Origin: Leptolyngbya sp. 'hensonii'
GTDB lineage: Bacteria > Cyanobacteriota > Cyanobacteriia > GCF-001939115
Direction: 5' to 3'
NCBI RefSeq assembly: GCF_001939115.1
Contig: NZ_MQTZ01000055.1
Coordinates: forward strand, 1 to 56,247
DNA length: 56,247 nt
In this document: piece after piece, positions 8,584 to 40,268 of the stretch
Numbering within the stretch: position 1 is the first letter of the stretch
Layout of the letters: each line of letters starts with the position of its first letter
Notes under the pieces: generated by a model
What the model was told of the DNA's origin: nothing
The model's input: only the letters and a program-made list of their open reading frames with translations
The model's database searches: none
Program-made: the position numbers and the translations under genes

Positions 8584-11500
8584 CTAGCGCAAGAGCGTCA
8601 GCACTTTTTCGATCACCTCTGTTCCCATTCTTTCGTTAGACGGAATAAACACCCTGCGTCGCCATGAGATGATCTCTGTGAAACACCCTGCTGCTTTGAG
8701 CTGATCGCAGAGTGCATCAGAGACCGTTCCTGTTAACTCCAGGCGAAGTTCACTCATCACCGTTGATGACCGCAGTGACAGCCCTCCAGGAAGAGGAAAG
8801 CTTTGCCGTTGGGACATCACAACGTGGAAGATTTCAGAAGCAGAGAGATCGACTTGATGTAGCCCTAACGAAGCTGCAATGTGCTGCATCTTCTCTGGCT
8901 CAATCACTCGTCCAAGGAGTTGTTCTCCTGTATCTGTTTGGAGACGAAATACCCGTAGGTTCTCCGAATCCAAGGAATTCCAGATCGGCAGGAGCAATCC
9001 GCAGATGAGGAAGAACCGCTTTGTTGAGAAAGTAGGGGCTTCTGCCACCTCCTTTTCCCAGAAATGTTGCCATTCTTCCTGAGGAACCGATTGCCACGAG
9101 CTATGGGTTAGCTCTGCTTGGGTGATCTTGCTTCTTCCAGTTGGTCGCACCAATGCCATCCGTGGGACGACTGCTCCAGCTTCATCAACAGTTGATGAGG
9201 TAGGAATAGCCACCGCTGCACGGACTGACCGGGTGTTGAAAACCAAACGCCCTTGATGCTCCATGAAGAGCTGCAATGCTGCTGACGCAGACAGAACCTC
9301 TGTTGTCTGAGTTTCTTCAACCTCGACACAGATGGTCTCTGCACCGGATGCGTGGGTATAGACCACGTTACGGTTTAAGACCTCGAACTTCTCAGCTCTG
9401 AGGGTTTCTACCCCAAGCTCAAATGTTCCAGATGAGATCGCGGCCTCAATCCTGGTTTCAAGCAACAGCTCAAACACCTCGAACAAGTCATTCTGAAGCT
9501 GAATGGGTAGTGCCAGTAGCCGATTGAGAAACTGCTGAATGTTTGGCAGATTCTCCCTCAATTGGCCTTCATCAGTCTTCAGGGCTAGCCCGGTTGAGGC
9601 TTCAAAGTGAGCCAATGAACAGCACTTCACCTGCCCCGAATAAAGGAGCGTAAAGAGGTGATGGAGGGCTGCTGCTGCATAGATCGATTCCAAGTTATCC
9701 TTCGGATCAAAGAGTCCTTGACCTCCGGTTTGTCGTTGACCTCGTGTGAGTGCCCCTAGTGCATCAAGCCGTCGAGCAATGGTTGAGATAAACCGCCGCT
9801 CTCCGCGCACATCCGTAACAACAGGTCGAAAGATGGGAGCGATCGCCTGGTTCGTCCGGTGACTCCGGCCTAACCCTTGAATCGCGTTATCTGCTCTCCA
9901 ACCTGCTTCCAGCAAGTAATGCACCCGTCGCCTTGTATTGCGGCAGTTCAGATCCGCATGATACGAACGTCCTGTGCCACCCGCATCGCTGAAGATGAGC
10001 ACCTGTTTTTCGTCACCCATGAAAGCGAGGGCTTCATCCAAGTTGGCTGAGCCTGGGCGATTACTCACAAAGAGCCGTCCAGTTTCTCGCTCACAAAGAA
10101 TGCGTTGCGATCGCCCTGTCACTTCTGCCACACGATCATGACCAAAGTGATGAATCAACTGATCCAATGCTCCTGGTAAAGGAGGCAGGCTTGCTAAGCG
10201 TTCAATGAGTGCATCTCGCTGGGCTACCGCCTCACGAGACAAAACTGGATTCCCGTCAGCATCAACAACCGGACGAGACAAGACCTGTCCTTCCTCCGTG
10301 GTGTACTCCTCATAGAGATGCACCGGAAAGGCATGAACCAGATAGCTCATGACATTTTCGCGGGGAGTGATGTCGATGTTCAGATCGTTCCATTCCTCTG
10401 TCGGTATCTCTGCTAAACGTCGCTTCATCAGCTCTTCGTTCGTGGAGACAACCTGGATGACCACTGCCATACCTGCTTCCAGATCCGATTCAATTGCTCG
10501 AATCAGGATGGGGCATTTGATCGACGTGATCAAATGGTTGAAAAACCTTTGCTTGTGGGATTCAAACGCAGATTTCGCAGCCATCTTTGCAGCTCGATTG
10601 CGCGTGCTACCATCACGACCGACAATGTTGCAGATTTGCAGGGCTTGCTCCAGGTGATTGTGGATGACGATAAACGCATCCGCGTAGGCATCGTAGATGG
10701 CAATCTGCTCAGCCGTCAGCGGAACGTCTAAAGCTTCATACTCCACCCCTTCAAAGCTGATGTTACGGGCAAAGTAAAGCCCTAAGGCTTTCAGATCCCG
10801 ACAAACCACTTCCATTGCAGCAACACCACCAGACTCGATCGCGGAGATAAACTCTGATCGGCTCGCAAAGGGAAAATCCCCTGTTTGCCAGAGTCCTAAC
10901 CGTGACGCATAGGCTAGATTGCTCACTTTCGTTGCACCCGTGGCAGAGACATAAAGTACCCGTGCCCCTGGCAGTGCATGTTGTAAACGCAGACCCGCTA
11001 ATCCTTGCTGAGAAGCTTGCTTGAGTCCACGACTCCCTAACTCTGCGATCGCATTACCCATCGCGTGAGCCTCGTCAAAAGCGATCACCCCCTCAAAATC
11101 AGACCCAAGCCAATCAATGAGTTGCTCTAGCCGTGACTTTTTACCCTGCCGACTGGTGCCGCGCAGCGTAGCATAGGTTGTGAACAGAATGCCTTGAGCG
11201 AGAGAAATGTCGGTTCCTAAATTGAACTGTGACAGCGAGTAAACCTGGGCTTCATCACCTCCTAAAGCAGACCAATCCCGCCGAGCGTCTTCGATCAGTT
11301 TGTCTGACTTTGACACCCATAGTGCTTTGGTTCGCCCCTGCATCCAGTTGTCCAAAATAACACCAGCAACCTGGCGCCCTTTGCCTGACCCTGTACCGTC
11401 TCCCAGAAACCATCCTCTGCGAAATCGCACTGCATCGGGATCGTCGCTGCTACAAACTTCAACCGAGTCAAACGATTGATCAACCTTGTAGGCTCCACTC

Positions 11501-13128
11501 AAAAACTGCGTATGAGCCTCACCCGCGTAGACTACACTTTCCAGTTGCGCCTCTGATAACAGCCCCTCAATTACCTGTTTAGGTAGCCGAGGACGGTAGG
11601 TTGGTGCAGGTGGACGCACTGATGCCAGAGCAACGGACTCACACAACGTCGTTGGATGAGGTTTTGCCCCTTGAATCGCAATGCGTTGAGGATGATAAAC
11701 CTCATAGAGCGTCGCTTCCAGGGACTTCTTCTCAGTCACCTCAATGAGGTTGTACTGGAGTTCAGTGACCTCATCCCAGATTGAGATAGGGGTTGCCGCA
11801 GGGGACTCCGATAGTGGTGGTTCCGGCTCAGGCAATACTTCCGTAACCGACGCAGACTCCTCAATTGGGCGAGTGCTTCGTTTCAGACAGATGTCGAGTT
11901 CTGGGACAGAAATCACCTCTGGGGCAGAGACCTCATTCACTGGCTGAACTTCACTTCGTGGGGGAAGCGACTTCAGCAAGTAAGCAACCTTAGCTATCTC
12001 TAGCGATCGCACTTTGGTTGGCTGCTGATTCACGGGCAGAATTATCCATTCCGTGCCGATGTCCAGGGTGATAGGTTCTCCCTCAGGTGCTTGCTTATCA
12101 ATGATCGTCAATCGAGTTTCGATCGAAGTGCCATGTTTGGCATAGACCTCACCCGACAGCACGACTGTTGCTCGCACACACACCTGATCTTCCAGTCCAG
12201 CAAAAGCTGATTGCCAGAATGAGGAGGTAGGAGAGAACCAATGTCCGGTAATCAGTACCATACGTCCCCCTGGCGTGAGTCGAAGGAACGCTGAGCGCAC
12301 ATGTTTCCCTGTAGCCTGAGGATTCCGCCTGTCCTGTTTCGGGGAAGCCGAAAAGGGAGGGTTCATCAGTACAACCGACGGGCGGATTGTCTCAGGTAGA
12401 AAGTCATGAATCTGTTCCGCATTAAACGGGTAGATTGGACTTTTAGGAAACAAGAGCTTAAGAAGCTGTCGTCTGCGATCGCTTAATTCATTGAGAACGA
12501 CTTCAGCTCCCCGTAATGAGCAGAACCGAGCCAGAATGCCAGTCCCGGCTGATGGTTCTAACACGAGGTCTTCTGCACGAATTCGCGCACAGTGCGAGGC
12601 AACATATGCTAATTGCAGCGGTGTTGAAAACTGCTGCATTGCGATCGCCTCTTCACTGCGACGAGTATGGGTGAGACCTAAACTCTCCAGACGAGCAAAC
12701 TGCTGAAGTACAGTCATAGCTGGGAGATTCCTCAGGTGCTCAATGTAATACGGCAACATGAACACCAGCGAAACTTCCTGGGCTTCGTAAGCATCCTTCC
12801 ATTGCCATTTCCCTTCCGCATCTGAACCGCCAAACTCCTTTTGCATCAGAAGTTTGGCTTGGGTGTTTGGTAGTTTTTGATGTTTCCAGAAGATACGCGC
12901 CATCTGCCGCGCAACCTCTAGGACTTTAACCTCATAAGCGACTTCAACAGGTTCGATATCTGCGAGAGTCAACTGCGTTACATCTTCCATAACCGTTTCC
13001 TCTGTGTAGGACGAAAGGCTGGAGAACCTGAGGATCCCTTGCCTTTTCCTGTTCGCCTCTACCCATGACCTGGTTGTGGAGATGTCAGTATTAACTTGAT
13101 CACAGTCTTGAGTTATGTCATTTTTCAT
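8584..13128 (-). CDS. Methylase-helicase of strawberry-notch/DarB type
   Basis: A protein of about 1514 aa. Near residue 190 is a Rossmann methylase motif (LEPSAGTGILARF), with MNPPF near 255 as in N6-adenine methylases. Near 575 a Walker A-like GDGTGSGKGRQ begins a strawberry-notch-type SF2 helicase, with DEAHAMGN (about 690) and motif VI QGLGRSHRTNQ (about 1085). Phage P1 DarB and plasmid relatives combine these modules and act against host restriction, so this is probably an anti-restriction or DNA-modifying factor travelling with the element. A Pro/Glu-rich linker (about 400-460) joins the halves. ATG 13128 has TGGAA at the same spacing as the upstream gene; ATG 13140 is the alternative. 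It is the main gene of the leftward cluster. Confidence 0.85.
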   Translation of the reverse strand: MKNDITQDCDQVNTDISTTRSWVEANRKRQGILRFSSLSSYTEETVMEDVTQLTLADIEPVEVAYEVKVLEVARQMARIFWKHQKLPNTQAKLLMQKEFGGSDAEGKWQWKDAYEAQEVSLVFMLPYYIEHLRNLPAMTVLQQFARLESLGLTHTRRSEEAIAMQQFSTPLQLAYVASHCARIRAEDLVLEPSAGTGILARFCSLRGAEVVLNELSDRRRQLLKLLFPKSPIYPFNAEQIHDFLPETIRPSVVLMNPPFSASPKQDRRNPQATGKHVRSAFLRLTPGGRMVLITGHWFSPTSSFWQSAFAGLEDQVCVRATVVLSGEVYAKHGTSIETRLTIIDKQAPEGEPITLDIGTEWIILPVNQQPTKVRSLEIAKVAYLLKSLPPRSEVQPVNEVSAPEVISVPELDICLKRSTRPIEESASVTEVLPEPEPPLSESPAATPISIWDEVTELQYNLIEVTEKKSLEATLYEVYHPQRIAIQGAKPHPTTLCESVALASVRPPAPTYRPRLPKQVIEGLLSEAQLESVVYAGEAHTQFLSGAYKVDQSFDSVEVCSSDDPDAVRFRRGWFLGDGTGSGKGRQVAGVILDNWMQGRTKALWVSKSDKLIEDARRDWSALGGDEAQVYSLSQFNLGTDISLAQGILFTTYATLRGTSRQGKKSRLEQLIDWLGSDFEGVIAFDEAHAMGNAIAELGSRGLKQASQQGLAGLRLQHALPGARVLYVSATGATKVSNLAYASRLGLWQTGDFPFASRSEFISAIESGGVAAMEVVCRDLKALGLYFARNISFEGVEYEALDVPLTAEQIAIYDAYADAFIVIHNHLEQALQICNIVGRDGSTRNRAAKMAAKSAFESHKQRFFNHLITSIKCPILIRAIESDLEAGMAVVIQVVSTNEELMKRRLAEIPTEEWNDLNIDITPRENVMSYLVHAFPVHLYEEYTTEEGQVLSRPVVDADGNPVLSREAVAQRDALIERLASLPPLPGALDQLIHHFGHDRVAEVTGRSQRILCERETGRLFVSNRPGSANLDEALAFMGDEKQVLIFSDAGGTGRSYHADLNCRNTRRRVHYLLEAGWRADNAIQGLGRSHRTNQAIAPIFRPVVTDVRGERRFISTIARRLDALGALTRGQRQTGGQGLFDPKDNLESIYAAAALHHLFTLLYSGQVKCCSLAHFEASTGLALKTDEGQLRENLPNIQQFLNRLLALPIQLQNDLFEVFELLLETRIEAAISSGTFELGVETLRAEKFEVLNRNVVYTHASGAETICVEVEETQTTEVLSASAALQLFMEHQGRLVFNTRSVRAAVAIPTSSTVDEAGAVVPRMALVRPTGRSKITQAELTHSSWQSVPQEEWQHFWEKEVAEAPTFSTKRFFLICGLLLPIWNSLDSENLRVFRLQTDTGEQLLGRVIEPEKMQHIAASLGLHQVDLSASEIFHVVMSQRQSFPLPGGLSLRSSTVMSELRLELTGTVSDALCDQLKAAGCFTEIISWRRRVFIPSNERMGTEVIEKVLTLLR

Positions 13129-13146
13129 ATCGATTTCCATAAAAAT

Positions 13147-14848: not shown

Positions 14849-15100
14849 ATGCTTGCAATTGCGAGAGTTAAATCTCCCCGCTACTACATTGATACAGCAC
14901 AAAAACAGGATGAGTTTGATCCGACGACGAAGGGCGAGCCACCAGGTCGATGGCTTGAGACAGCAGGTGCCGTTTTTCTTGGGCTTGCTGGTCGAGTTAA
15001 ACGTTCTGACTTCCTTAGTCTGACTCAAGACTTCTCGATAGGTGAGAAGACACTCATTCATCCTGCTAAGGAAATACGACGAGTACCAGGCTGGGACTGA
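14849..15100 (+). pseudogene. N-terminal fragment of MobF relaxase (frameshifted)
   Basis: This 83-aa frame carries the start of a TrwC/TraI-type relaxase: MLAIARVKSPRYYID with a Tyr pair near residues 12-13, then WLETAGAVFLGLAGRVKRSDF. AAGGAT lies upstream of the ATG. It ends GWD-stop at 15100. Moving back one base at GAC (15095-15097) continues into LTFSAPKSVSLLW, the conserved relaxase motif, and then the next frame. One base has therefore been lost relative to an intact gene. Transesterase tyrosines lie on this fragment and the metal-binding histidines on the other, so neither piece alone should be active. Confidence 0.75.
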
Positions 15101-15135
15101 CCTTTTCTGCCCCCAAAAGTGTAAGCCTGCTCTGG

Positions 15136-17355
15136 ATGGTGGCAGACGTAGTGACAAGACTAATCATTGAGCAGGCCCATGCTCAGGCGATTGCAAAAGC
15201 GATTGCGTATCTTGAGCAGGAAGCATTTGGCGGCGACAAAAGCCTCATTATTGCCTCTTTTCAGCAGGGGAGTAGCCGGGAAGGGACAAATTCCATTCCT
15301 GATCCGCTGTTGCATACCCATGCGATCGCCTTACCGATGGTTTATGAAAAAGCCAGTGGGAGGATCGAAAGCCTATACCCTTATGCCAAAGCACTTTACC
15401 GTCACAAGATGGCAGCGGGAGCCGTGTACCGGGCAGAGTTTGCAGCACAATTGCAACAGAGCTTAGGGATTTCTCTCCAACGTGAGAAGAGCTGGTTTGA
15501 GCTAAAAGGCTTCTCCCGTGAAGAAGGAGTCTATCAGGAACTGATGAATCATTTCTCCTCACGTCGTCGTCAGATTGAGGCAGCAAATCCGCAGGATGCG
15601 ATCGAAGCCCAGAAAATTGCCTATGCAACCAGGCAACGAAAGGAAATAGCTATTGCTCGAAGTGAACTATTTGCTCAGTGGCAAGAGACCAGTGAGCAGT
15701 ATGGATTTGGTCAGAAACAGGCACTTAAACTTCTCCATGCTCCACGAGAACGAACAACAGTCCGGCAGAAGTGGCAGGAGTGGCGAACACTGAGGGAAGC
15801 TGCAACCGCCGTTGTGCGTCATCAGAGCCACTTTACCCGACGCGATATAGTGCGGGCTATTGCTGAAGCGGCTCAAACCAGAGGATTGAATAGCTACGAT
15901 GTGCTGAGACTCACCGATAAGTATCTTGCCTCTCGACAAGTAGTGGCGTTGGGTCTGATTGATCGGGATGAACGGTGGGCTAACAAACGGCTCTATAACT
16001 TGGAAAAGCAGATGCTTGCTCAGGTGCGAAAGTTGGAGCGAGATACTACGTTTCGGGTTTCGACTCGTTATGTGCGATCGACAGCAGAAAATCATCGTCT
16101 AACCCATGAGCAGACGCAGGCACTTGACGCGATTACGGCTAGAGGGCGAATTAAGGTGCTTTGTGGGCTTTCTGGAACAGGAAAAACTCATACCTTGGCT
16201 GCTGCCTATCAAATCTGGAAAAGCCAGGGGTATGAAGTGGTAGGAGTTTCCTTATCAGGTAGACAAGCCCAGCGGCTTACAGAGCAAACTGGTATCGGAC
16301 AGCAGAGTTTTCTTTCCAAGGTTTTTGTGGGGGAGAAACAGCAAAGTGTGACGCTCTCGAAGTTGTTGTGGGATATCGAGAGGGCAGCAGAGAGTCAGCG
16401 CCGCTACGGTAGCCGTTCCGTTGTTGAGTCGCCTCTGTCTACAAAGACCGTGGTAGTCGTCGATAATGCTCAAGCGATCGGTGTTTCTCATATGAAGCAG
16501 TTAGTTGATGAGACACAAAGGGCAGGTGCCAAGCTGGTGCTTTCTGGAGACTTACAGCAACCCCAGGCGTATGAGCATAGCGGGGCACTAAAGGCGATCG
16601 CCCAGAACGTAGGGACCGTAGAACTTAAAAGGATTCACCGCCAGGAAGAGCCGTGGGCACAACAGGTGGTGCAGAAAGTAGGGGAAGGTCAGGCGAAAAC
16701 AGCACTGGAGTTATTGGCTGACCGAGGGCTGCTCTCCATCGCTGAGACTAAAGAGGCTGCAATGTTGGCTGTGATTACTGCATGGTCAGAGCGGGGGATG
16801 AAGCGACCTCACGACCACCTCATCATTGCTGAGACTCAGGAGGATGTTCAGACTCTTAACCGTTTGGCTCAAGCCAGGTTAGTTGAGGCAGGGTATCTCG
16901 GAAACTCTGCCGTGCGGGTGGGTGCGGAACATATCCGGCGAGGAGAGCGGATTAGGTTCCAGGAAACATCCCGCACCTATGGCGTGATGAAGAACGGTAT
17001 GGGAACCGTGAACCATATTGACCCGATTACTAAGGTTGCGCTGGTGCGACTAGATACCGGAAAAATGAAAGCGATTAATGTACGGCATTATTCCGGGATT
17101 GAGCTAGGGTATGCCGTAACGACGACTGATGCCAGGAATATGGAGGTGAGACATTCCTATATCCTTACCCAGGGCAAAGGACGGGATGCAGCCCTGGTAC
17201 AGGTATCGCGAGCAAAGTCTGAGACGAGAGTGTTTACCTATTCTCTGGATAAAGAGGTGGAAGCATCCCTGAAGCTTGCACGGCAAATGAGCTGGGAAAA
17301 AGCAAATGAACTGGCAATTAAGCTTGAAGAACGAAGGCTGGAGCAAGAGAGGTAG
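15136..17355 (+). CDS. MobF relaxase-helicase, main part (HUH and RecD-like domains)
   Basis: These 739 aa continue the frame of 14849-15100 after a -1 shift; the conserved sequence starts at about 15097, before ATG 15136. Residues 45-70 hold the relaxase histidine motif SSREGTN..DPLLHTHAI. The first of the three metal-binding histidines seems replaced by Gln (FQQGSSRE). A RecD/TraI-like helicase follows with Walker A GLSGTGKTHT (about residue 345) and LSGDLQQPQ. The Walker B-like motif reads VVVVDNAQAI, where relatives usually have DEA. In intact form the protein nicks oriT and unwinds the transferred strand. The split and the replaced residues suggest reduced or lost transfer activity. Confidence 0.8.
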   Translation: MVADVVTRLIIEQAHAQAIAKAIAYLEQEAFGGDKSLIIASFQQGSSREGTNSIPDPLLHTHAIALPMVYEKASGRIESLYPYAKALYRHKMAAGAVYRAEFAAQLQQSLGISLQREKSWFELKGFSREEGVYQELMNHFSSRRRQIEAANPQDAIEAQKIAYATRQRKEIAIARSELFAQWQETSEQYGFGQKQALKLLHAPRERTTVRQKWQEWRTLREAATAVVRHQSHFTRRDIVRAIAEAAQTRGLNSYDVLRLTDKYLASRQVVALGLIDRDERWANKRLYNLEKQMLAQVRKLERDTTFRVSTRYVRSTAENHRLTHEQTQALDAITARGRIKVLCGLSGTGKTHTLAAAYQIWKSQGYEVVGVSLSGRQAQRLTEQTGIGQQSFLSKVFVGEKQQSVTLSKLLWDIERAAESQRRYGSRSVVESPLSTKTVVVVDNAQAIGVSHMKQLVDETQRAGAKLVLSGDLQQPQAYEHSGALKAIAQNVGTVELKRIHRQEEPWAQQVVQKVGEGQAKTALELLADRGLLSIAETKEAAMLAVITAWSERGMKRPHDHLIIAETQEDVQTLNRLAQARLVEAGYLGNSAVRVGAEHIRRGERIRFQETSRTYGVMKNGMGTVNHIDPITKVALVRLDTGKMKAINVRHYSGIELGYAVTTTDARNMEVRHSYILTQGKGRDAALVQVSRAKSETRVFTYSLDKEVEASLKLARQMSWEKANELAIKLEERRLEQER

Positions 17356-17413: not shown

Positions 17414-18508
17414 TTACTCCTCATCCTCTAACCTTCTTGGTCGTATCATATGACGAAGCTCATCCACGTCATCAAGGAGGTCACGTTCTCGTTGATAACG
17501 CTTTTCAGGATCGATAGCTACGCAACGTTTAACTATTCTGTCTATCAGGTGCCACGCATTAACTGGAAGTCGGTTCTTGTCAATGTTAAGAATGCTGGCT
17601 GCATGACTTGGAGGTTGGAACCTTTTCTCCATACCTTCGATGTCTTTTTCGGTTAAGTTATCGAAGTATCCCCCATATCCTCCATAAGGATACGTGAGCG
17701 TTAAAAGTTCGTACCAAATGACACCAAAACTAAACTGATCACTGCGATCATCAGCAAAGCCTTGTTCGGACTTTCTCGATAGTAGTTCTGGTGCTCGGTA
17801 CTTGGGATGAGTCCCATCTCCAGGATCTCGATTCATAGTGTGTTCTACAAGCCACGCACTTCCAAAATCGATCATCACGAGTCGGTTGGGGTTACGTTGA
17901 AGAATCAGATTGCTTGGATCAAGATCACCATGAACTATATTTAGTCGATGAAGTTGTCGTAGTCCATGGGCAAGACTGATCATTAACAGACAAACTTCAT
18001 AGGCAGTCGGTCGAGGTTCACATTTTATCCCTGTTTCACGCTTCTCAGCGCATATCAGCTTTCTCTGAATACATTTATTTCCCTCACGTTCACAGCGATG
18101 GCCGTTTTGGACACGTTTTAAATAGCGTCCTAAGTCTTCACCGTCAGTCCATGAGGTAACGAGGTAAACTCGTTCATTGCCTATCCGGTAGTAGCTATAA
18201 ATAACGGGAAGCCTGCCATCGTTTCCCGACAAGCGTTTCAGTTTCTCAATGAGTCCTGGCGGTCGATTCCTGTTTCTGGTATCTAGGTTTTTGCCATCAA
18301 TACCTAAGATGCACCACATCTCGCCTCTGTTTTTACTCCATCGATCGAACGCCATATACTGTTCACGTTTCCTTGAAAGGTCTTTAACGATGTAATAGGT
18401 CTTCTTCCCAAGAGTTAGAGTATGGGTGACGTCATAGCTTTTTCCGTGCCAGCGGACTTCTTCTGGCTCATCAAGTTTTTTAAGATATTTCCTACCCCAT
18501 TCATTCAC
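17414..18508 (-). CDS. Serine/threonine protein kinase-like protein
   Basis: A 364-aa protein with a Hanks-type kinase fold: an N-terminal lobe (YYIVKDLS), the catalytic loop HGDLDPSNLIL (about residue 193; Asp and Asn kept, Lys of HRDxKxxN replaced by Asp), VMIDFGSAW (DFG, about 213), YRAPELL (APE, about 243) and DQFSFGVIWYELL. A Cys-containing insert (about 150-180) is unusual. There is no membrane segment. It is the last gene of a leftward trio with a Cas4-like membrane protein (66-bp gap) and a second kinase-like protein. Confidence 0.82.
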   Translation of the reverse strand: MNEWGRKYLKKLDEPEEVRWHGKSYDVTHTLTLGKKTYYIVKDLSRKREQYMAFDRWSKNRGEMWCILGIDGKNLDTRNRNRPPGLIEKLKRLSGNDGRLPVIYSYYRIGNERVYLVTSWTDGEDLGRYLKRVQNGHRCEREGNKCIQRKLICAEKRETGIKCEPRPTAYEVCLLMISLAHGLRQLHRLNIVHGDLDPSNLILQRNPNRLVMIDFGSAWLVEHTMNRDPGDGTHPKYRAPELLSRKSEQGFADDRSDQFSFGVIWYELLTLTYPYGGYGGYFDNLTEKDIEGMEKRFQPPSHAASILNIDKNRLPVNAWHLIDRIVKRCVAIDPEKRYQRERDLLDDVDELRHMIRPRRLEDEE

Positions 18509-18574
18509 AGTACATATCTCCCCGTGTAATTGCTGTATCGGGACATGGATCTAAAGAATTGTGCGTGGAGGAAG

Positions 18575-19738
18575 TTATTGGAGATACTTGTCTGATGCTT
18601 TTTCATGAGGGGGCAACCATTTGAAGCGATCGCCACATTCGCTGTGATAGGGGCGGCGATCAAGACCACTAATATGGAAATTCACTGGAGAGTTTAGCCT
18701 TCCGGTTCTTGCATTACTCTCGCCCTCTCGATAGGCAAAAGGCTTTCCTTTTGGACAGTTTAGACAATTTCGTTGATTTGGGGGGGGTGAGGGGGTTTGT
18801 CCACCTTTGGCTGAGGATACAATGTGCCGAGCTTCCTTTAAACCTTTGTGAAATGCAGCACGCGATCCTGATCCTTCACGATTGGAGACAGTAATTCCTT
18901 CATACACTTCTCGCCCAAGCAGAATAATACCGTAGGGGCTACGTCCACCTTCGACCTTTTCAAGGAGATGGCAGTATGCAGCCATACGAGCATAGTGCTG
19001 TCCTTTCAGCTTCCGCGTTGACGCATTCTCATCTCTCCGTCTCCATACAGGTATACGTAAAGACCCTTTCTTAAGGACACGCCACGGTCGTCCTGCTACT
19101 CGATATTTGCGGTCTCGGAGCGGCTCTTGATAAGAAACTGATTCAAACCCAGCAGCGAGTAGATCCCACCAATTTACAGATTCATTATCAGTTAACTCAT
19201 TAGGTTCTTTTGGCCTTGCCCTCAACGCGGCAGCTCGTCTTGCTTGTAGAATTTTTATATCTGATTCTAAAGAAGATATATTTGAATCCGAATAATATAC
19301 TTTAGGGATACGAGAAAGAGCAAAAAGATAGGCGATACCAGCAATTAGAAGGTGTAACCATGAATTGAAGCCTAAGAAGTAGAGAACAACTGTTGCGACA
19401 AAAGCTATGACTGAAGTTACAATTAATCTTGTCTTTCGTAGTTGCTGTTGCTGAAGTAGTGATTCGTCTCTCTTTGCTACGCGAATTCGCAGTTCATTTA
19501 TAGACCAGTTTAGTCTTGTTGCTATTTCACTGGAGTTGTAACAGGGTAAGTACTGGAGGTTCGTTCGCTGCTCTTCGTAATACTCGTCATCGTCCTCCTG
19601 TCCTAACTCATACGCGATGAGACCAGCTCGTGGGCAGAACATAAATTCAGTCATGGCGTGAACCCCGATCCAAGGGGTATGCTCACGAGCTATCAACCCT
19701 TCACCTGGACTACTCTTGCCGCTAGATGAATACGTCAT
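18575..19738 (-). CDS. Membrane protein with Cas4-like/PD-(D/E)XK-like domain
   Basis: The 387-aa protein opens with MTEFMFCPRAGLIAYE, like the CPR motif at the start of Cas4/DUF83 nucleases. Two membrane helices follow (about 140-185), then a core GRPWRVLKKGSLRIPVWRR and QHYARMAAYCHLLE, the layout of Cas4 motifs II to QhxxY. The expected Asp and the E-x-K are replaced (W, W-R-R), so nuclease activity is doubtful. C-terminal CLNCPKG and a later YHSEC could be metal ligands. Its start overlaps the upstream kinase gene (ATGA), so the two are coupled. The Cas4 relation is inferred from motif order. Confidence 0.6.
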   Translation of the reverse strand: MTYSSSGKSSPGEGLIAREHTPWIGVHAMTEFMFCPRAGLIAYELGQEDDDEYYEEQRTNLQYLPCYNSSEIATRLNWSINELRIRVAKRDESLLQQQQLRKTRLIVTSVIAFVATVVLYFLGFNSWLHLLIAGIAYLFALSRIPKVYYSDSNISSLESDIKILQARRAAALRARPKEPNELTDNESVNWWDLLAAGFESVSYQEPLRDRKYRVAGRPWRVLKKGSLRIPVWRRRDENASTRKLKGQHYARMAAYCHLLEKVEGGRSPYGIILLGREVYEGITVSNREGSGSRAAFHKGLKEARHIVSSAKGGQTPSPPPNQRNCLNCPKGKPFAYREGESNARTGRLNSPVNFHISGLDRRPYHSECGDRFKWLPPHEKASDKYLQ

Positions 19739-20985
19739 GTCCTACCCCTGGTTCCTCCTAAACGCCAAAAAGATAGAGCTTTTGATATTTCCTCCGCTGA
19801 GTGAGGTCTTTCGTCAGGATAAATACTGAGACAAGCCTCTACTTGTTGGTAGAGTTTCTTAGGAAGCACATTGATGCAGTCAGGAAGATCGGCTCTTTGG
19901 GGTTGTAGGTTTCCGGTGGCGATCGCGACGAGGATCATTGCCCAACTGTAGAGATCAGATTCCACAGTTGAATCTGCCGCTCCTGGCTCAAGTCGTGGAT
20001 CTCTAAAAGGATTGGGTAGAAGCTCTTGATCGCACACTGTTGATGATCCTGTAAGAACTTTTGCTAACTCGAAGTCGAGTACAAATGGCTGCTTATCAAA
20101 TGGAATTACTATCGACTGTGGATGGAGGTCTCGCAGAATAATGCCTTCGGTATGAAGCTCATACAGTGTAGTTAAAAGGCAACGAGCAAAGGGAAGGATA
20201 TCTGTGCGAGAGAATTGCTTGTTCTTCACCAGTGCCTCTACGGTGTCTCCTTCAATCCATTGATCAATAACCCACCATTCATTAGGTTCATCTGGATTAT
20301 CGGGGAGGGCAGTGCGGTTTACAGGGATGCCTTTGGTGCGCCGTTCAGTGAGATGATCAACCACCTTCTTATGCCGGAAAAGCTTTGATTGAAGTGCCTT
20401 CTGCTCATCAGTGCTGAGATATCTGATGTCATAACATTTCCCCCTATCAATACGGTTGAGGTACTTTTCACGGAGACGAAAGACACGATATTGAATACCA
20501 TTTGAAGCGGTTATCCACGGAGTAATGCGGTCTTCAATAAGCCAATTATTGAAGCTTTTTTGTTTTGTGGTGGCAGATGGTTTTGCGGAAACTAAAGTGC
20601 CCAGTGGAGATTCTTGACTGGAATATGCGTCGATGTCATGAGGTTTCTCTCTAACAGACAAGCCAGTTTCAGGGCTTGAATCGGAGTATCTCTGTGGAGG
20701 AGTTTTAGTAAGGTATTCTTCTTTGAGTTCTAGCTTTAGTGCAGAGAAAAGTAGTTGAATTGAATCCTTGTCAGCACGTTTCTTTTGTCCAAATATATTT
20801 GAGATAACTGTCCTATCTCTATCTACGCCTCCATTACTTTCTGCAATCAAGTTTTGGAGGTATTCAAAGGACACACGATTTTTTCCCTCCTGTGAAGCTA
20901 ACTTCTCTCTCTGCTCTTCAAGGAGTTTTCTCGCCTCGTTAGTTATGAAGAAGCCGCGGTTACGTATTTGCTCCTCAAGGTTCAT
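19735..20985 (-). CDS. HTH-kinase-like protein
   Basis: A 416-aa protein. Residues about 40-95 (SFEYLQNLIAESNGGVDRDR, then TVISNIFGQKKRADKDSIQ) resemble the small N-terminal HTH-like domain found on cyanobacterial signalling and conflict proteins. A protein-kinase-like domain spans about 160-410, with LRDLHPQSIVI (catalytic Asp, about 283) and LDFELAK, where DFG is DFE. It may phosphorylate its partners or act as a pseudokinase sensor. It is the first gene of the trio. The upstream region holds two MITE-like elements rather than a plain promoter. Confidence 0.7.
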   Translation of the reverse strand: MNLEEQIRNRGFFITNEARKLLEEQREKLASQEGKNRVSFEYLQNLIAESNGGVDRDRTVISNIFGQKKRADKDSIQLLFSALKLELKEEYLTKTPPQRYSDSSPETGLSVREKPHDIDAYSSQESPLGTLVSAKPSATTKQKSFNNWLIEDRITPWITASNGIQYRVFRLREKYLNRIDRGKCYDIRYLSTDEQKALQSKLFRHKKVVDHLTERRTKGIPVNRTALPDNPDEPNEWWVIDQWIEGDTVEALVKNKQFSRTDILPFARCLLTTLYELHTEGIILRDLHPQSIVIPFDKQPFVLDFELAKVLTGSSTVCDQELLPNPFRDPRLEPGAADSTVESDLYSWAMILVAIATGNLQPQRADLPDCINVLPKKLYQQVEACLSIYPDERPHSAEEISKALSFWRLGGTRGRT

Positions 20986-21218: not shown

Positions 21219-21376
21219 CATTCGCTACGCTTAAAGTCCCTGTGACTTTAGCGAGGAGCATGAATCTAAATTTATGTGCTATTTCAATCAAGGGATAAGG
21301 CTGATCGATCGCCACAAAGCTTTTCTGGAGAGGATCTTAGCGAGTTTAGGGTGTAACGCTTAAAGTCCCATCCTTA

Positions 21377-21492
21377 GAGGATGTCTGAAAAGTCAGCTAA
21401 AACTTTTGTCGGGAGTAACTTCTGGCCTTTCGAGGTATTTCCCTTGAGATCCTTACAAGGCAAGCCTTCCAGGAAACTTTTCAGACATCCTC
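21377..21492. mobile_element. 116-bp MITE with TTA target duplication
   Basis: Perfect 17-bp terminal inverted repeats GAGGATGTCTGAAAAGT (start 21377) and its complement (end 21492) enclose about 80 bp without a gene. TTA flanks both ends (21374-21376 and 21493-21495), a 3-bp duplication of TNA type as used by the IS1031 group of IS5. The small frame across it is not credible as a gene. Confidence 0.75.
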
Positions 21493-21661
21493 TTAAAGCC
21501 CCTATTCTCCCAGACAAACCATTGTGGATGTGCAATTCTGAATTATCGAGCAAATCAAAAAGTGATTGCTGAAAGAGGCAGAAAGAACTGCTGAATTCAT
21601 AGTCATGAGATTCACATAGCCGCAACAAAACCAGTAACCTTCGCTGAGGAGAAACACAAAC

Positions 21662-23418: not shown

Positions 23419-24207
23419 GTGGATAAACTACTAGCGCGTACAGTTTCCATAAACCCTCAACGGAAAATTCGGAAGATTGTCTTTTTTGGAGGAGAAAAAG
23501 GTGGGGTTGGTAAGAGCATGTCTACTAGTACCGCCGTAGAGTTCTGTTTAGAGAAGGAGCTAAAATTTATTCTTGCGGAATGTGATCGTGTTAATCCAGA
23601 TACGGCAAGAATCTATCGCCCCAATGCTGATGTCTTGTTCGCTTACTTCAGTGAAGATCCAAACAAACGCGCAAAAGCCGATCCTGTGGTTAAAGCAGCC
23701 GTTGATTCCTCCTTAGTGCTTTGCAATCTCCCTGCTCAGTCTTATCAAGCTATGAAGGATTGGTTCATTGAAGATGGTCTTTACGAATTGGGACAGGAGT
23801 ACAATATCGCCTTCTATCATTGGTATGTTTCCAATGGAGGATATGACTCCGTTCAGATCTTCATCAAATCACTCAAAGAACTGGGTTCCTATATGCAGCA
23901 TATTTTTGTAAGGAACTGGGGGCTTTGTGATGATTGGACTCATGTAGAGGATCATAGAGATATGAAAGCTGCAAGAGCAGAGTATAACTTTCCTATCATT
24001 GATTTGCCCAAGCTTCCTTATGCAGAAAGGAACTTTATCGAGGACTACAACTTTTCCAGGAAAAAAGATGAGGATAAACTCACTTTTACCTCTGCTGTGA
24101 CTCATCCTGAATTAAGTTTGGTTTCAAGGAAACGGATCAAGAATTTCCTACGCGATAGCTTTGCCCAAATCGAAAGTACAGGAATACTGAGCGATGAAAA
24201 GCCCTAA
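23419..24207 (+). CDS. ParA/MinD-like ATPase of the transfer region
   Basis: A 262-aa protein starting at GTG 23419 behind GGAGG. It has the deviant Walker A GGEKGGVGKSMSTST (about residues 23-37), ILAECDRVNPDTAR, and a C-terminal helical part (NFSRKKDEDKLTF). ParA-like ATPases of mobilisation loci help position DNA or transfer proteins. It differs from the partition ParA at 2466-3122. The next gene starts within its end (14-bp overlap). Confidence 0.75.
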   Translation: MDKLLARTVSINPQRKIRKIVFFGGEKGGVGKSMSTSTAVEFCLEKELKFILAECDRVNPDTARIYRPNADVLFAYFSEDPNKRAKADPVVKAAVDSSLVLCNLPAQSYQAMKDWFIEDGLYELGQEYNIAFYHWYVSNGGYDSVQIFIKSLKELGSYMQHIFVRNWGLCDDWTHVEDHRDMKAARAEYNFPIIDLPKLPYAERNFIEDYNFSRKKDEDKLTFTSAVTHPELSLVSRKRIKNFLRDSFAQIESTGILSDEKP

Positions 24208-25297: not shown

Positions 25298-27259
25298 ATG
25301 CGTAACAAACAAACCGTAGATCTTCGTACAAGGATGCTTCAGTCTGTACAAAAATTTCCTGCATGGGGTAGGGGGGTAGTAGCCAGCCTCTTTATCATCA
25401 TCACCGCTCCATGCATTTATGCACTCGGTGCAGGAGTGACTGACCTCTTTCTGAATCTGTTTCAACTCTCATTCTTTAATCCTGGCAATGTTGTTGGTCA
25501 TTTCGTTGGTTTATTGTGTTCAGCAGGGAGTTCCTACGTCATCTTCAAGGCCATTTCTGTATTGGTTACTCTCAAGAATTGGCAAGAAGGGCTAATCCCG
25601 TTGAATTTCTGGGGACTGTCAGTCTTTGCGGTGATTGGTGCTGGGTTTGGGACTCTAAGCCTTAGTCTTATTCTCCTTCCCAGTATCAATCTTAAACTCG
25701 CTTTGGTGTTTGCTGTCTTTATAGCAGGATTAGTAACAGCGGCATTGGTGGAATCGCAATGGGTTCTTTGGGATCGAGTGATACGAGGGAAAAAGCTTCG
25801 ATACTCTGGCGATATCAGCAACCGTTTAACTGAAGTAGCAAATCATCCTCTGCCGTGGGGAAAACTGTGGGTCAAAAAGATTCAGGAATCCTTAGGCTAC
25901 TTCGTTTTAGGCGCACCTGGAATGGGGAAGAGTACTTGGCTAGAGGTGCTGATGACGATTGCCTTGTCAGGTATTGGCATTATCCCAAATCATCGTGGGT
26001 TGCTTTACGATGCAAAGCCCGATCAGACAGCAGGTTTGGTTCCGTTTCTAGAAGCACTAGGTATTCCCTATAAAATCCTTAACCCGCTCGATCGTCGTTG
26101 CACCGGATGGGCAATTGGTAAGGATATTCGAGGTGAAGCAAGTGCAGCGGAGTTTGCGGCGGTGCTGATTCCAGAGACTGAGAGCAACAATGACAATCAG
26201 TATTTTATTGATGCTCCTCGATTGCTGATCACAGCAGTAATTGTTGTTCTCATCAAAATATTTGGAGCGAACTGGACGTTGCGTCATCTGATTCTATTTT
26301 GTAGTGACAAAGTGCTCATGCAGAAATTGTTGGAGAAGCATCACCCACGCCATCAGGCATACATGGAGTTTTTTAAGGAGAAGAAGGGACAGAAAAACGA
26401 GGTGATCACAACAATTCAGTCAAATCTACTGCCCCTCGCTATTGTTGCTGCTCGTTGGGAACATGCTCAAGACATGATTTCAATTCGTGACTGGCTTAAG
26501 GGGGAATATGTCCTCATCATGGGCAGTGACTTTGAATTTCCAGAGACCCTCAAGCGGATTAACCAGCTCATGTTCCGCTTCGTAACAAGTGGTCTTAAGG
26601 GGCTACCTGATGACTCGGATCGTCGTGTCTGGATGTTTATTGATGAATTAGCAGCAATGGGTGAATTGCCTCAACTGGAAGACATTTTGGCGTTAGGTCG
26701 TTCCAAATCAATCTGTACGTTCTTGTCTACTCAGAATGTCCCTGCATTACTAAGGATTTTAGGTCGAGAGAAGACATGCGAAATCCTCGGTCTTTGCCGA
26801 TGGAAAGCAATTATGGGAGTCGATTCTGAATCCGCTAAGTTCTTAAGCGAGTACTTCTCTGACTACGAATATGTCGATACCAGCTACAGCGCTTCAGTCT
26901 CATCCGGGCCTCAAGGCAGCACCTTCACTTCAGGAACACAAGAGCGGATAGGCAATCGACGCACTGTTATAGCTCAACAATTTATGGATATGAACATTTC
27001 ATCTCCTGGCCCAGAGAATGGATTGCATGGTTACTTTGTTGGCCCTGGGGAAGGAATTCACTTTCACACATATGGGTGGGATGAAATCGAAGAGATGCGA
27101 GTCAAACGGGTTGACTATGTGACTGCCTACGATCGCATCAGTGACGATGACCCTACAACCTCACTGAATCCCTGGACGGATGAAGAGCGTGAAGCCTTAG
27201 GAATCTACAGCGATAGCGATTTTCAGGTCAGTAAGCCACGGAGAAACACTAAACAGTAG
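25298..27259 (+). CDS. Type IV coupling protein (TraG/TraD/VirD4-like)
   Basis: A 653-aa protein with N-terminal membrane segments (about 20-160), Walker A GAPGMGKSTW (about residue 206), and Walker B MFIDELAAMGELPQLEDIL (about 447) followed by GRSKSICTFLSTQN, the TraM-recognition/TraD signature. The protein links the relaxosome to a secretion channel and pumps DNA. AAAGGACAGCG precedes ATG 25298. No other type IV secretion genes appear in this window, so transfer would need genes elsewhere or help in trans. Confidence 0.88.
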   Translation: MRNKQTVDLRTRMLQSVQKFPAWGRGVVASLFIIITAPCIYALGAGVTDLFLNLFQLSFFNPGNVVGHFVGLLCSAGSSYVIFKAISVLVTLKNWQEGLIPLNFWGLSVFAVIGAGFGTLSLSLILLPSINLKLALVFAVFIAGLVTAALVESQWVLWDRVIRGKKLRYSGDISNRLTEVANHPLPWGKLWVKKIQESLGYFVLGAPGMGKSTWLEVLMTIALSGIGIIPNHRGLLYDAKPDQTAGLVPFLEALGIPYKILNPLDRRCTGWAIGKDIRGEASAAEFAAVLIPETESNNDNQYFIDAPRLLITAVIVVLIKIFGANWTLRHLILFCSDKVLMQKLLEKHHPRHQAYMEFFKEKKGQKNEVITTIQSNLLPLAIVAARWEHAQDMISIRDWLKGEYVLIMGSDFEFPETLKRINQLMFRFVTSGLKGLPDDSDRRVWMFIDELAAMGELPQLEDILALGRSKSICTFLSTQNVPALLRILGREKTCEILGLCRWKAIMGVDSESAKFLSEYFSDYEYVDTSYSASVSSGPQGSTFTSGTQERIGNRRTVIAQQFMDMNISSPGPENGLHGYFVGPGEGIHFHTYGWDEIEEMRVKRVDYVTAYDRISDDDPTTSLNPWTDEEREALGIYSDSDFQVSKPRRNTKQ

Positions 27260-32106: not shown

Positions 32107-35100
32107 ATGAGCCTCCAAGCAGGCCAGATTGTTCAAGTACGATCGCGCCAATACCTCGTTGAAGAAGTTATCAGTCCATTCCGTGAGGAAGGGGACACAC
32201 AGGTTCGGCTTGCTTGCTTGGAAGATGATGCTCAGGGACAGCAGCTTGAGGTTTTTTGGGAGCGCGAGGTTGATGCCCGAATTCTAGGCGCATCCTCCTG
32301 GGAGTCAGTGACCCAGAAGGGGTTCGATAACCCTCGCTACTTTTCAGCCTATTTTCATGCCTTGCGGTGGAATTGTGTGACCTCCACTGAACCAAAGCTT
32401 TTTCAGGCACCCTATCGGGCTGGGATCGAGGTTAAAGCGTATCAATTAGAACCCTTAAGAAAGGCACTACTGATGCCAAGGGTGTCGCTTTTTATCGCTG
32501 ACGATGTGGGGCTGGGAAAAACGATTGAAGCAGGTCTCATCCTCCGAGAAATGCTGATGCGTCAAAAAATTAAGCGCGTTGTCATTTCATGCCCTCCCTC
32601 AGTTGTGCGGCAATGGCAGGAGGAGATGGAAAGTCGCTTCGGCTTGCTGTTTCAGATTTTCGATCGCGAGTTTGTGGCGGCGAAGCGTCGAGAACGGGGG
32701 TATGGGGTTAATCCGTGGAAGACCCATACTCGCTTTATCATTTCCCATGCGCTGCTGAGAGACGAAACCTATGCAGCTCCCTTGCGAGACTGGCTAGAAG
32801 AGTTTAACGCTGGGTCAATCTTAATCCTGGATGAAGCTCATAATGCTGCACCTGCCAGTGGGTCTCGGTATGCGATCGACTCTCAATTGACCAAAACTGT
32901 GCGAGAACTGGCTCCTCGCTTTGAGCACAAGCTCTTTTTATCAGCGACTCCTCACAACGGTCATTCCAACAGCTTTGCGGCACTGCTCGAAATCCTGGAT
33001 CCTCAACGCTTTTGTCGAGGGGTTAAGGTTCATCCAAAGCTTTTGGATGCTGTAATGGTGCGTCGGCTGAAGCAGGACTTGCGAGAAATTGGCGATCGCG
33101 ATTTCCCTGAACGCCACATTATCCCAATGGTGATTGATGGGTTACCTGACGATGCCCCAGAGCTAGAACTGGCACGGTTGCTTCAGGAGTACCGATCCTG
33201 CCGGGAAGAGCGGCTGAAAGATGCGGCAAAATCAACCCAGGTAACCGCGATGTTGGTGATGACATCGCTTCAGAAGCGTCTGCTCTCGTCGATCGAAGCG
33301 TTTGCCCGAACGTTGCGCGTTCATCGGGCGGCGATCGCCCGTCAAGCTGAGAAACAGCGAATCGCCACTACTCACAACTTTTCTTTGTTGAAGGAATCGC
33401 CAGGTTCTGATGATGAACGAGCGGACTTGTCCGAGGATGAGATCCAGGCGGAAGAGGATGCTCAGATGGCTGCGGCTACTCAATCAGCAGCAGAGGCAGT
33501 CTCAGCCAGGGAGTTGGAACTTTTGGAGAAGATGACGCAGATTGCAGAGTCAACGCGGTATCAACCCGATGGACGGGTGAAAAAACTCATTGAGTGGGTT
33601 CAGCAAAACCAGTGTCCCGATTTAGGGCAGTCAGGAGCTAGGTGGAACAATCGCCGTGTGCTGATTTTCACGGAGTACACAGATACTAAGCGTTATCTTG
33701 AGCATCAACTGCAACAGGCGATCGCCCTTTCTGACCGAGAACGTGAGCGGATTGATGCTTTTACAGGCGGTATGGGCGATGAGCAGCGGGAGCGCGTTAA
33801 GTCTGCTTTCAATGCTGACCCACAGCATCATCCGCTGAGAATTTTGATTGCCACGGATGCGGCACGGGAGGGGGTGAATCTCCAGAACCACTGTGCTGAC
33901 CTCTTTCATTTTGATGTGCCCTGGAATCCGAGCCGGATGGAACAGCGGAATGGTCGGATTGACCGCAAGCTCCAGCGGGAATCTGAGGTTCGGTGTCATT
34001 ATTTTTATTTGGCGCAACGTCCTGAGGATCGGGTCATCGATGTGCTGGTGAAGAAGACTGTTACGATTCAGCAGGAGTTGGGTAGTCTCTCTCCAGTCAT
34101 TGAGCGGAACATCTCAAAGATTCTTGATACGGGCATTCGAGCCAAGGATGAGGTAAGCCTGACTGCTGCGATCGCCGTTGCCGACCACGCTGATGAGGAC
34201 TCGAAGGTTAAAGGGCAGGTCATAGAAGAAGAACTTGAGGCAGTTCGGATTCGGAAGCAAAAGCTATTCGAGCAGCAAGCCTTGCTTGAAGATATGCTTC
34301 AGGATTCTCAAAAGTGGTTAGGGCTAGACGATCGCCACTTTAGAGATGCCCTATCCGCCTCACTCGAAATCCTTGGTGCTCAATCATTGGAGCCAATGGA
34401 TGCAAAGGAGGCAATCAAAGATGCCGATCGTGCTAGATGGATCATTCCGGCTTTACATGAACGAGCAGGAGCGGATCCTACCTGGGCAACGACCTTGGAT
34501 ACTCTGAGGGCACCTCGCAAGAAGGGACAGAAGCTTTGGGAATGGCGTAACGAAACAGCGATTCGTCCGGTCGTATTCCGTGACCCAGGCACATTGGATG
34601 GAGAGGTGGTGCATCTTCACCTAGAGCACCGACTGGTGCAGCGTCTACTAGGACGCTTCCTGTCTCAGGGCTTTCTCTACCATGAGCTGACTCGCTCCTG
34701 TGTGTGTTTAACGGATGATCCGGTGCCGAAGGTTGTGATCTTGGGTAGGCTGTCCCTCTATGGCGATCGCGCCTCCAGGCTTCATGACGAAATTGTCGCG
34801 GTGGCAGCGGAATGGCTGGATCCAGAAGCGCGGGGACGGGGAAAGCTAAGACCGCTAACGGAAACGGAAAAGGCGGATGTGCTGAAAGAGCTGGAAACTT
34901 CACTGGTCACACCTCGATTGCGGGAGGTTTCTCCCTCGCTGTTAGAACGGTGCAAAACCTATGCATCTAGGGATGTGGAGGATTTGCTCTCTCATTTAGA
35001 GCGCCGCGCTGAAACACTGACAGAGCGAGCGGAACGCAAATTGCGGCAGCGTGGGGAGAAAGAAGCCGATGAAATGAAGCGTCTGTTGGAAGACCAGCGC

Positions 35101-35328: not shown

Positions 35329-35342
35329 GGGAGAGCAAGAAA

Positions 35343-39485: not shown

Positions 39486-39579
39486 ATCAACCTATCGTGG
39501 TCCATATCCATTAGAAGTAAAAATTGCCAGAAATCTGGGCTATATTGAGTCCAAGCATAATAGCTTGCGAGGATAGCAC

Positions 39580-40263
39580 ATGCCAGACAATCCAGAGAAA
39601 AGCATAAGCGAAGCTAATATAAGCGGTGTCGATCCTTTCAGTAACGTGATCAAGCAGAGTGGGGAGTTCGTAAAATATATTTATGTTGAGCAAAGGCTTC
39701 CAGCCCTGATCTTGATACTAACAATAGTTTCACTAGTTACTGTTATTGTTTCTAGTCCCTCAGAAAAGACTAGGCTCTTCTTATGGTTTACGACTATTCC
39801 ACTGCTTTTAATCCTTACGTTCTTTGTGTTGCCAAAGCAAGGAAAAGAAGTCCAAGAAATCAAGAGAGTAAATAAGTCTCTTACACAAGAGAATGGACAA
39901 TTGCAATCTGAGCGTGCTACTTGGAACGACAAGCTTCGAGAGGTAAGAGAACAGATTACTGATTTAACGAATGGCTCTATAAGTCACCTTGAAAGTATTG
40001 AAAGAAAGTTGAATGACATAAGAGGTCAGGTTAATGAATTCCTGATTACAGGGGAATTCAAGAAACCAGATGAGTACTTAAAGGAGCTAGATCAAGAGCT
40101 TTCTCGTTTACTTGAGTATATCAAGCTTAGAAGACAAGAGATTGATGGTTTACAAGCTCGTATACCCGGAGCAGAGCAAGTACTGGAGACATCGGCTGAA
40201 GCAGCAAAGCTATTTGCAGCACTTCAAATTGACCTAGAGAATAAGGAAAATACAAAAAATTAG
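39580..40263 (+). CDS. Membrane-anchored coiled-coil protein, 227 aa
   Basis: Two adjacent membrane helices (about residues 45-65 and 72-90) are followed by about 110 residues of strong heptad pattern (QEIKRVNKSLTQENGQLQSE and onward) and a short Gln/Glu-rich end. There is no catalytic motif. It lies between drmMI and the convergent gene at 40269. Anchored coiled coils occur in some defence systems as effectors, but a link here is only positional. ATG 39580 is 94 bp after drmMI. Confidence 0.6.
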   Translation: MPDNPEKSISEANISGVDPFSNVIKQSGEFVKYIYVEQRLPALILILTIVSLVTVIVSSPSEKTRLFLWFTTIPLLLILTFFVLPKQGKEVQEIKRVNKSLTQENGQLQSERATWNDKLREVREQITDLTNGSISHLESIERKLNDIRGQVNEFLITGEFKKPDEYLKELDQELSRLLEYIKLRRQEIDGLQARIPGAEQVLETSAEAAKLFAALQIDLENKENTKN

Positions 40264-40268
40264 TTGAG

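What the first reader, a model, noticed from the sequence alone, without database searches (positions are those of the whole stretch)
17414..20985. Kinase, membrane Cas4-like protein and HTH-kinase trio, possible undescribed defence or signalling system
Two kinase-like proteins flank a two-helix membrane protein whose C-terminal half follows Cas4/PD-(D/E)XK motif order but lacks the acidic catalytic residues. The genes are coupled (ATGA overlap) and sit on a mobile element. I know of no named system with this set.
Basis: partly seen in the sequence, partly recalled or inferred. Interest (0 to 1): 0.7.

Follow-up and report, generated by a model that had tools for sequence, protein, structure and literature searches.

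The report
Kinase–dead-Cas4–pseudokinase module on mobile elements
On a cyanobacterial plasmid, three neighbouring genes encode a DNA-binding-type pseudokinase, a membrane protein built on a nuclease-dead Cas4 domain and an unusual kinase; the same trio recurs on mobile DNA in distantly related bacteria (Planctomycetota), so it is a real, apparently undescribed working unit, although whether it defends the cell or manages the plasmid's transfer is not yet known.

Summary
The trio lies at 17414-20985 (-) with an ATGA junction between the first two genes, on a contig whose backbone (broken MobF relaxase, ParA-like protein, TrwB-type coupling protein) is shared with Leptolyngbya plasmid pLBX. Searches found 25 copies in 21 genomes (2 cyanobacteria, 19 Planctomycetota). 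Every copy of the middle gene has the first kinase gene beside it on the same strand; the second kinase gene is within 8 kb in 20 of 25. The middle protein is Cas4-like by profile comparison (hhalign 97.7%, E 2e-12 against Cas4-like nucleases with intact catalytic residues). It lacks the catalytic acids in 24 of 24 sequences but keeps the four cysteines: dead by conserved design, not decay. The 'HTH-kinase' is a pseudokinase; the other kinase keeps HxD...N and DFG but lacks the beta-3 lysine. In Planctomycetia the trio is tied to a VirD4/TraG-like ATPase (17 of 23 fetched loci; all 7 full-length ATPase copies in a separate survey share a contig with it). pLBX lacks the trio, so it is accessory in cyanobacteria. 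Best reading: a membrane signalling unit serving the mobile element. Defence is unproven.

The parts
19735..20985 (-). kinA: N-terminal extension (HTH in relatives) plus protein-kinase fold; pseudokinase by motif (beta-3 Lys K183 kept in 24/24; HRD Asp replaced by E/G/N in 22/24 though still D here; catalytic Asn lost in all; DFG reads (D/E)(F/L)E in 24/24)
   Evidence: Pfam Pkinase 1.3e-10; HTH_3 in 11/24 family members; alignment A11 and column counts
18575..19738 (-). midB: membrane-anchored, nuclease-dead Cas4-like protein
   Evidence: hhalign of family profile with Cas4-like nucleases 97.7%, E 1.9e-12; alignment A10 and column counts
19307..19426 (-). midB residues 105-144: two hydrophobic segments predicted to cross the membrane, between the first Cys motif and the nuclease-like half
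   Evidence: Kyte-Doolittle scan over 24 homologues
19622..19642 (-). midB residues 33-39, MFCPRAG: first Fe-S-type Cys (C35) motif
   Evidence: C35 24/24, R37 24/24
19034..19093 (-). midB residues 216-235, GRPWRVLKKGSLRIPVWRRR: degenerate PD-(D/E)XK motif (GRPDRI...IPEEWK in the Cas4-like relatives with intact catalytic residues)
18632..18766 (-). midB residues 325-369, C-x2-C ... CG: remaining three cysteines of the Cas4-type cluster
   Evidence: C325 and C328 23/24, C368 24/24
17414..18508 (-). kinC: protein kinase with intact HGD...N and DFG motifs but without the beta-3 lysine
   Evidence: Pfam Pkinase 8.1e-20; HxD, N, DFG/DYG 19/19 and Lys 0/19 at the beta-3 position; alignment to StkP/PknB
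19735..19738 (-). ATGA stop/start overlap of kinA and midB
   Evidence: sequence
15136..17355 (+). backbone context: MobF/TrwC relaxase-helicase, converging on kinC; reading frame broken just upstream (14849-15100 / 15136-17355)
   Evidence: TrwC 1.9e-28, AAA_30 8.1e-36; frames
23419..24207 (+). backbone context: ParA-like ATPase of the plasmid operon read away from kinA
   Evidence: 50% identical to the CCT1 copy, 32% to the pLBX copy
25298..27259 (+). backbone context: TrwB/VirD4-type coupling protein in the operon read away from kinA
   Evidence: TrwB_AAD_bind 1.4e-42

Best explanation
The three genes encode one membrane-tethered signalling unit that belongs to mobile genetic elements. midB sits in the membrane through two helices and carries, on the cytoplasmic side, a Cas4-derived domain that has kept its four cysteines but lost the nuclease site; it most likely acts as a DNA- or redox-responsive sensor or adaptor. 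kinC is the likely phosphotransferase (intact catalytic loop and DFG, no beta-3 Lys). kinA, a pseudokinase with an HTH region in many relatives, is the likely output, a DNA-binding switch acting on the element, usually on the divergently transcribed DNA-transfer operon next to it. The unit would thus control or gate the element's transfer, establishment or exclusion of rivals. Shown: the module, its conservation, the loss and retention pattern of catalytic residues, its linkage to transfer genes. Inferred: topology, sensing, direction of signalling, what is controlled.
For: Trio conserved in 25 copies/21 genomes of two phyla in different gene orders (kinC usually convergent; order kinC-midB-kinA in L060). 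Distance matrices of the three proteins correlate, r 0.79-0.89, permutation p 0.0005. Where kinC is separated from kinA-midB (L072, L074) it sits near the element's VirD4-like ATPase. Neighbours: VirD4/TraG-like ATPase family c3 at 17 of 23 loci, two unnamed families c2/c4, ParA/ParB, integrases, ArdC. In 179 Planctomycetia genomes all 7 full-length c3 copies share a contig with midB, and 7 of 9 midB copies share a contig with c3; shorter c3-like ATPases occur without it. kinA (or kinC) is head-to-head with the transfer operon in most loci, including two other backbones: cyanobacterial MobF/TrwB (window, CCT1) and Phycisphaerae VirD4/relaxase. Pseudokinase precedent in conjugation: TraF of pIP501 (PMC13037476).
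Against: pLBX of Leptolyngbya boryana has the same backbone (relaxase - slot - ParA - coupling protein) with no trio, so transfer by that backbone does not need it. c3 shows no recognisable relationship to the window's own TrwB-type protein. No relaxase was identified in the Planctomycetia flanks among the families listed. No operator-like inverted repeat stands out upstream of kinA. An HTH is detectable in only 11 of 24 kinA proteins. No expression or biochemical data.
Confidence: 0.45

Rival explanations
1. An anti-phage or anti-plasmid defence system carried as cargo: midB senses invading DNA at the membrane, kinC/kinA relay, and the cell or the invader is stopped.
For: Same plasmid carries DISARM and pAgo genes 11-29 kb away; flanks of Planctomycetia copies include Lamassu, Druantia, reverse-transcriptase and CARF-type genes; accessory in the cyanobacterial backbone; low, scattered distribution (17 of 348 Planctomycetia genomes); kinases occur in known defence systems such as MADS and BREX PglW (profile resemblance only).
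Against: Constant partners are transfer/partition genes, not defence genes; no PADLOC or NCBIfam system matches at full length; no active nuclease or recognised toxic effector in the trio; absent from the phage and viral collections. The defence genes in the flanks vary while the VirD4-like ATPase does not.
Confidence: 0.3
2. A structural part of a conjugation-type membrane complex: the pseudokinase and the dead Cas4 domain act as scaffolds, like the pseudokinase TraF of pIP501 or EssB/YukC of type VII secretion.
For: Linkage to the VirD4-like ATPase; membrane anchor; degenerate catalytic sites; TraF precedent.
Against: TraF has its transmembrane segment in the pseudokinase protein itself, whereas here it is in the Cas4-like protein; kinC keeps its catalytic loop; backbone pLBX lacks the trio.
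Confidence: 0.13
3. A host-type signalling cassette unrelated to the element, merely hitch-hiking on it.
For: Planctomycete genomes hold dozens of kinases (56 matches of the kinA profile in one genome).
Against: The trio keeps the same element genes as neighbours across many genomes and is found beside transfer genes in three different backbones.
Confidence: 0.08
4. midB is still a nuclease that uses other catalytic residues, so the trio is a kinase-controlled DNA-cutting system.
For: The surrounding motifs and cysteines are conserved, and a conserved Q-H patch follows the motif (Q247 19/24, H248 18/24).
Against: No Asp/Glu at the metal-binding positions in any of 24 sequences.
Confidence: 0.04

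Closest known systems
Cas4 (PF01930) and the membrane-anchored Cas4-like nucleases of Planctomycetia (L049-L058)
   Same: Domain order, the GRPD/IPEEWK region by alignment, Cys motifs at the C-terminal end; hhalign 97.7%
   Different: Catalytic Asp replaced by W/F/Y/R and both Glu lost in 24/24; a two-helix insertion between first Cys motif and core; no linked cas1/cas2 recognised next to the trio; kinase partners
MADS (MAD6 kinase)
   Same: Both kinA and kinC score best among NCBIfam models against MAD6 (5.6e-21, 3.3e-21)
   Different: Scores far below the MAD6 cut-off (75 against 460 bits); rest of the MADS gene set absent next to the trio; no methyltransferase partner
TraF of pIP501 and EssB/YukC (T7SS)
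   Same: Pseudokinase linked to a DNA/protein translocation machine of a mobile element or secretion system (PMC13037476)
   Different: Single membrane pseudokinase; no Cas4-like partner, no second kinase; Gram-positive systems
Single-kinase anti-phage systems (PD-T4-6, Stk-type)
   Same: Ser/Thr kinase fold
   Different: Those are stand-alone kinases; here two degenerate kinases with a membrane Cas4-like protein
Leptolyngbya boryana plasmid pLBX
   Same: Same backbone around the trio slot (MobF relaxase, ParA-like, TrwB-type protein)
   Different: Slot between relaxase and ParA operon holds unrelated genes; no trio

Membership tests
Cas4 nuclease (CRISPR adaptation) | Cas4/PD-(D/E)XK domain by sequence profile | tested here: met
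   hhalign A10 vs A13 97.7%, E 1.9e-12; A13 members match Cas_Cas4 up to 4.9e-9
Cas4 nuclease (CRISPR adaptation) | Four-cysteine Fe-S motif | tested here: met
   C35, C325, C328, C368 in 23-24 of 24; the cluster itself was not measured
Cas4 nuclease (CRISPR adaptation) | Catalytic D...(D/E)xK | tested here: not met
   D->W/F/Y/R, both Glu positions non-acidic in 24/24
Cas4 nuclease (CRISPR adaptation) | Linkage to cas1/cas2/CRISPR | tested here: not met
   Scanned window neighbours by Pfam/PADLOC: none; flanks of 20 loci: one Cas1_IIIb-type hit only. CRISPR arrays were not searched for
Active Hanks-type kinase (kinC) | HxD, N and DFG motifs | tested here: met
   19/19
Active Hanks-type kinase (kinC) | beta-3 VAIK lysine | tested here: not met
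   0/19; aligns to H/Q/L and others. Another Lys could substitute, as in WNK kinases (own knowledge)
Active Hanks-type kinase (kinA) | HRD Asp, catalytic Asn, DFG Gly | tested here: not met
   Asp kept in 2/24 (window is one), Asn 0/24, Gly 0/24
MADS defence system | MAD6 at its curated cut-off plus the other MAD genes | tested here: not met
   75 bits against 460; no other MAD gene adjacent to the trio in the window, scattered mad2/mad3 hits in flanks only
Conjugative T4SS component | Required for transfer / part of the membrane complex | not testable with these tools
   Linkage only; absent from backbone pLBX
Anti-phage defence system | Protects cells from phage | not testable with these tools
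   No challenge data; genomic context mixed

The most novel reading that the evidence does not exclude
A new kind of mobile-element control device: a membrane-anchored, nuclease-dead Cas4 Fe-S domain that monitors DNA at the transfer pore, coupled to two complementary half-kinases (kinA keeps only the beta-3 lysine, kinC keeps only the catalytic loop and DFG) that signal, perhaps only together, to switch the element's transfer or exclude rivals.
Probability: 0.18. Interest if true: 0.85.

Novelty: categorically new. Interest (0 to 1): 0.62.

Why it matters
Cas4 is known as a nuclease of CRISPR adaptation and of some viruses. Here a conserved lineage has kept the Fe-S-type cysteines, shed the active site and been wired to kinases in the membrane, on mobile DNA. 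If confirmed, it would show the Cas4 fold reused as a sensor or adaptor and would add eukaryote-like kinase signalling to the control of bacterial gene transfer (or to immunity). Either outcome is testable with deletion, conjugation and phage-challenge experiments. The parts are known folds; the combination matches no system in the libraries or papers searched.

Tried and rejected
PDB profile search with the midB family gave no nuclease hit. Searches of plasmids, phages and viral contigs with midB were negative, apart from one annotated cas4 found with a relative's sequence. Inverted repeats upstream of kinA as an operator: not above shuffles. First genome-contig scan with one sequence found nothing; the alignment-based scan found two. 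Considered and rejected: chance neighbourhood (25/25 kinA-midB adjacency), decay of an active nuclease (loss pattern conserved in 24/24), MADS membership. Literature searches found no description; only open-access papers are covered. Two searches failed on term syntax.
Full report
WHAT IS THERE. Three minus-strand ORFs: kinA 19735-20985, midB 18575-19738, kinC 17414-18508. kinA and midB overlap as ATGA; kinC follows after 66 bases. kinA and kinC are kinase-fold proteins. midB alone gives only weak Cas4 hits. The contig is C55 (66.5 kb) of a 5.94 Mb genome that is the only held member of its order; its relatives place it among cyanobacteria (CCT1 of the same class; plasmid backbone pLBX).

CO-OCCURRENCE. 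One relative was found among 390 genomes of the class: Filamentous cyanobacterium CCT1, with the whole trio in the same order and strand. An alignment-based scan added a Phycisphaerae genome, and profile searches of Planctomycetota added more. In all 25 copies (21 genomes) midB has kinA beside it on the same strand (one copy, L067, with a 4.2 kb insertion between them); kinC is within 8 kb in 20, and in one more (L072) it lies about 20 kb away on the same contig beside the VirD4-like ATPase. The misses are three copies in one genome and one copy at a contig end. In most Planctomycetota copies kinC is on the opposite strand, tail to tail with midB, and in L060 the order is kinC-midB-kinA, so the association is not just operon inheritance. 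Pairwise distances of the three proteins correlate (r 0.79, 0.89, 0.89; permutation p 0.0005); this shows shared descent, not interaction. Prevalence is low: 17 of 348 Planctomycetia genomes at E<1e-50, 2 of 120 Phycisphaerae, 2 of 390 in the window's class, each count including the genome used as centre.

THE MIDDLE PROTEIN. The midB profile also picks up short membrane-anchored Cas4-like proteins with intact catalytic residues (GRPDRI...IPEEWK) in Planctomycetia, which match Cas_Cas4 and PDDEXK_1 in Pfam. Profile-profile comparison of the two families gives 97.7% and E 1.9e-12, with GRPD opposite GRPW and IPEEWK opposite IPVWRR. Over 24 midB sequences the Asp position is W 20, F 2, Y 1, R 1; the first Glu position is V in 24; the second is F/I/V/W/H; the Lys position is variable (K in 6). 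C35 and C368 are present in 24/24, C325 and C328 in 23/24. So the nuclease centre is gone while the cysteines and the surrounding motifs (FCPRAG, PWRVL..GSLRIPV, YHS.CGDRF.W.PPH) are strongly conserved: this is not decay. Two hydrophobic segments lie between the first cysteine and the core in most copies (some copies show one or none above the threshold). If the four cysteines bind one cluster, both ends must be on the same side of the membrane, which fits two helices (inference). Both structure predictions were too poor to use.

THE KINASES. kinA: the RGK lysine (K183) is invariant; HRD Asp is E in 18, G in 3, D in 2 (window and CCT1), N in 1; the catalytic Asn is absent in 24/24; DFG reads D/E-F/L-E in 24/24. 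HMMER alignments to PknB/StkP confirm the register of the C-lobe. 11 of 24 kinA proteins match HTH_3, best 4.7e-8; the window copy does not on its own. kinC: HxD, Asn and DFG/DYG in 19/19; the beta-3 Lys position holds H, Q, L, I, Y or M, never K. The two proteins are thus degenerate in complementary ways.

CONTEXT. In Planctomycetia the neighbours cluster into recurring families: c3, a VirD4/TraG-like ATPase (TraG-D_C 1.9e-7), at 17 of 23 fetched loci; c2 and c4, with no Pfam family; c5 of about 140 aa; ParA (c8) and ParB (c6). Integrases and ArdC anti-restriction proteins occur in the flanks. In a survey of 179 genomes all seven full-length c3 copies lie on a contig with midB, and seven of nine midB copies lie with c3, while shorter c3-like ATPases occur without it. 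That set overlaps the one in which midB was found, and the c3 profile was built from copies found next to midB, so the exclusivity may be somewhat overstated. In the Phycisphaerae copy the neighbours are a VirD4 protein and a relaxase-type protein; in the cyanobacteria a MobF relaxase and TrwB-type coupling protein. In most loci the end gene of the trio (kinA, or kinC in five) is read away from the transfer operon next to it.

COUNTER-EVIDENCE. Leptolyngbya boryana pLBX has the same backbone order with no trio in the slot, so in cyanobacteria the trio is accessory. The window plasmid also carries DISARM and pAgo genes, and some Planctomycetia flanks carry Lamassu, Druantia and others. A defence role therefore remains a serious rival.

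LITERATURE. No paper found describes this set. The closest idea is the finding that TraF of pIP501, essential for conjugation, has a pseudokinase fold like EssB/YukC (PMC13037476). DefensePredictor (PMC13092281) mentions neither Cas4 nor pseudokinases in its main text.

VERDICT. A real, conserved, apparently undescribed three-protein module of mobile elements. Its parts are known folds, two of them clearly without classical catalysis. I favour a membrane signalling unit acting for the element (0.45) over defence cargo (0.30).

Noticed in passing
window 32107-49397: DISARM genes drmD (32107-35328), drmMI (35310-39485), drmA (44113-47514), drmB (47511-49397), with a pAgo pair on the other strand inside the cluster (41120-42562 PIWI half, pAgo_I 1.9e-142; 42563-43945 with an endonuclease-type N-terminus and pAgo N-half match).
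   Followed up: partly
window 14849-17355: The MobF relaxase is split over two frames near 15088-15136, either a broken gene or a sequencing error; CCT1 has an intact 856-aa copy.
   Followed up: partly
L049-L058: A family of short membrane-anchored Cas4-like proteins with intact catalytic residues in Planctomycetia; their surroundings were not examined.
   Followed up: partly
L060, L068-L071, L073, L075, L078: A recurring gene set c5-c4-c2-c3(-c4-c2) with ParA/ParB: an apparently undescribed family of Planctomycetia mobile elements built around a VirD4/TraG-like ATPase.
   Followed up: partly
window 21376-21493: Perfect 18-bp inverted repeat 82 bp apart (AGAGGATGTCTGAAAAGT) upstream of kinA, like a small MITE; no further copy in the window.
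   Followed up: partly
window 8584-13140: 1518-aa Strawberry-notch-type helicase (AAA_34, Helicase_C_4) with a mad2-like N-terminal stretch, next to a DUF6876 gene.
   Followed up: no
L059, L062, L077 (genome G1032): Three kinA-midB copies in one genome, none with kinC nearby; kinC was not looked for elsewhere in that genome.
   Followed up: no
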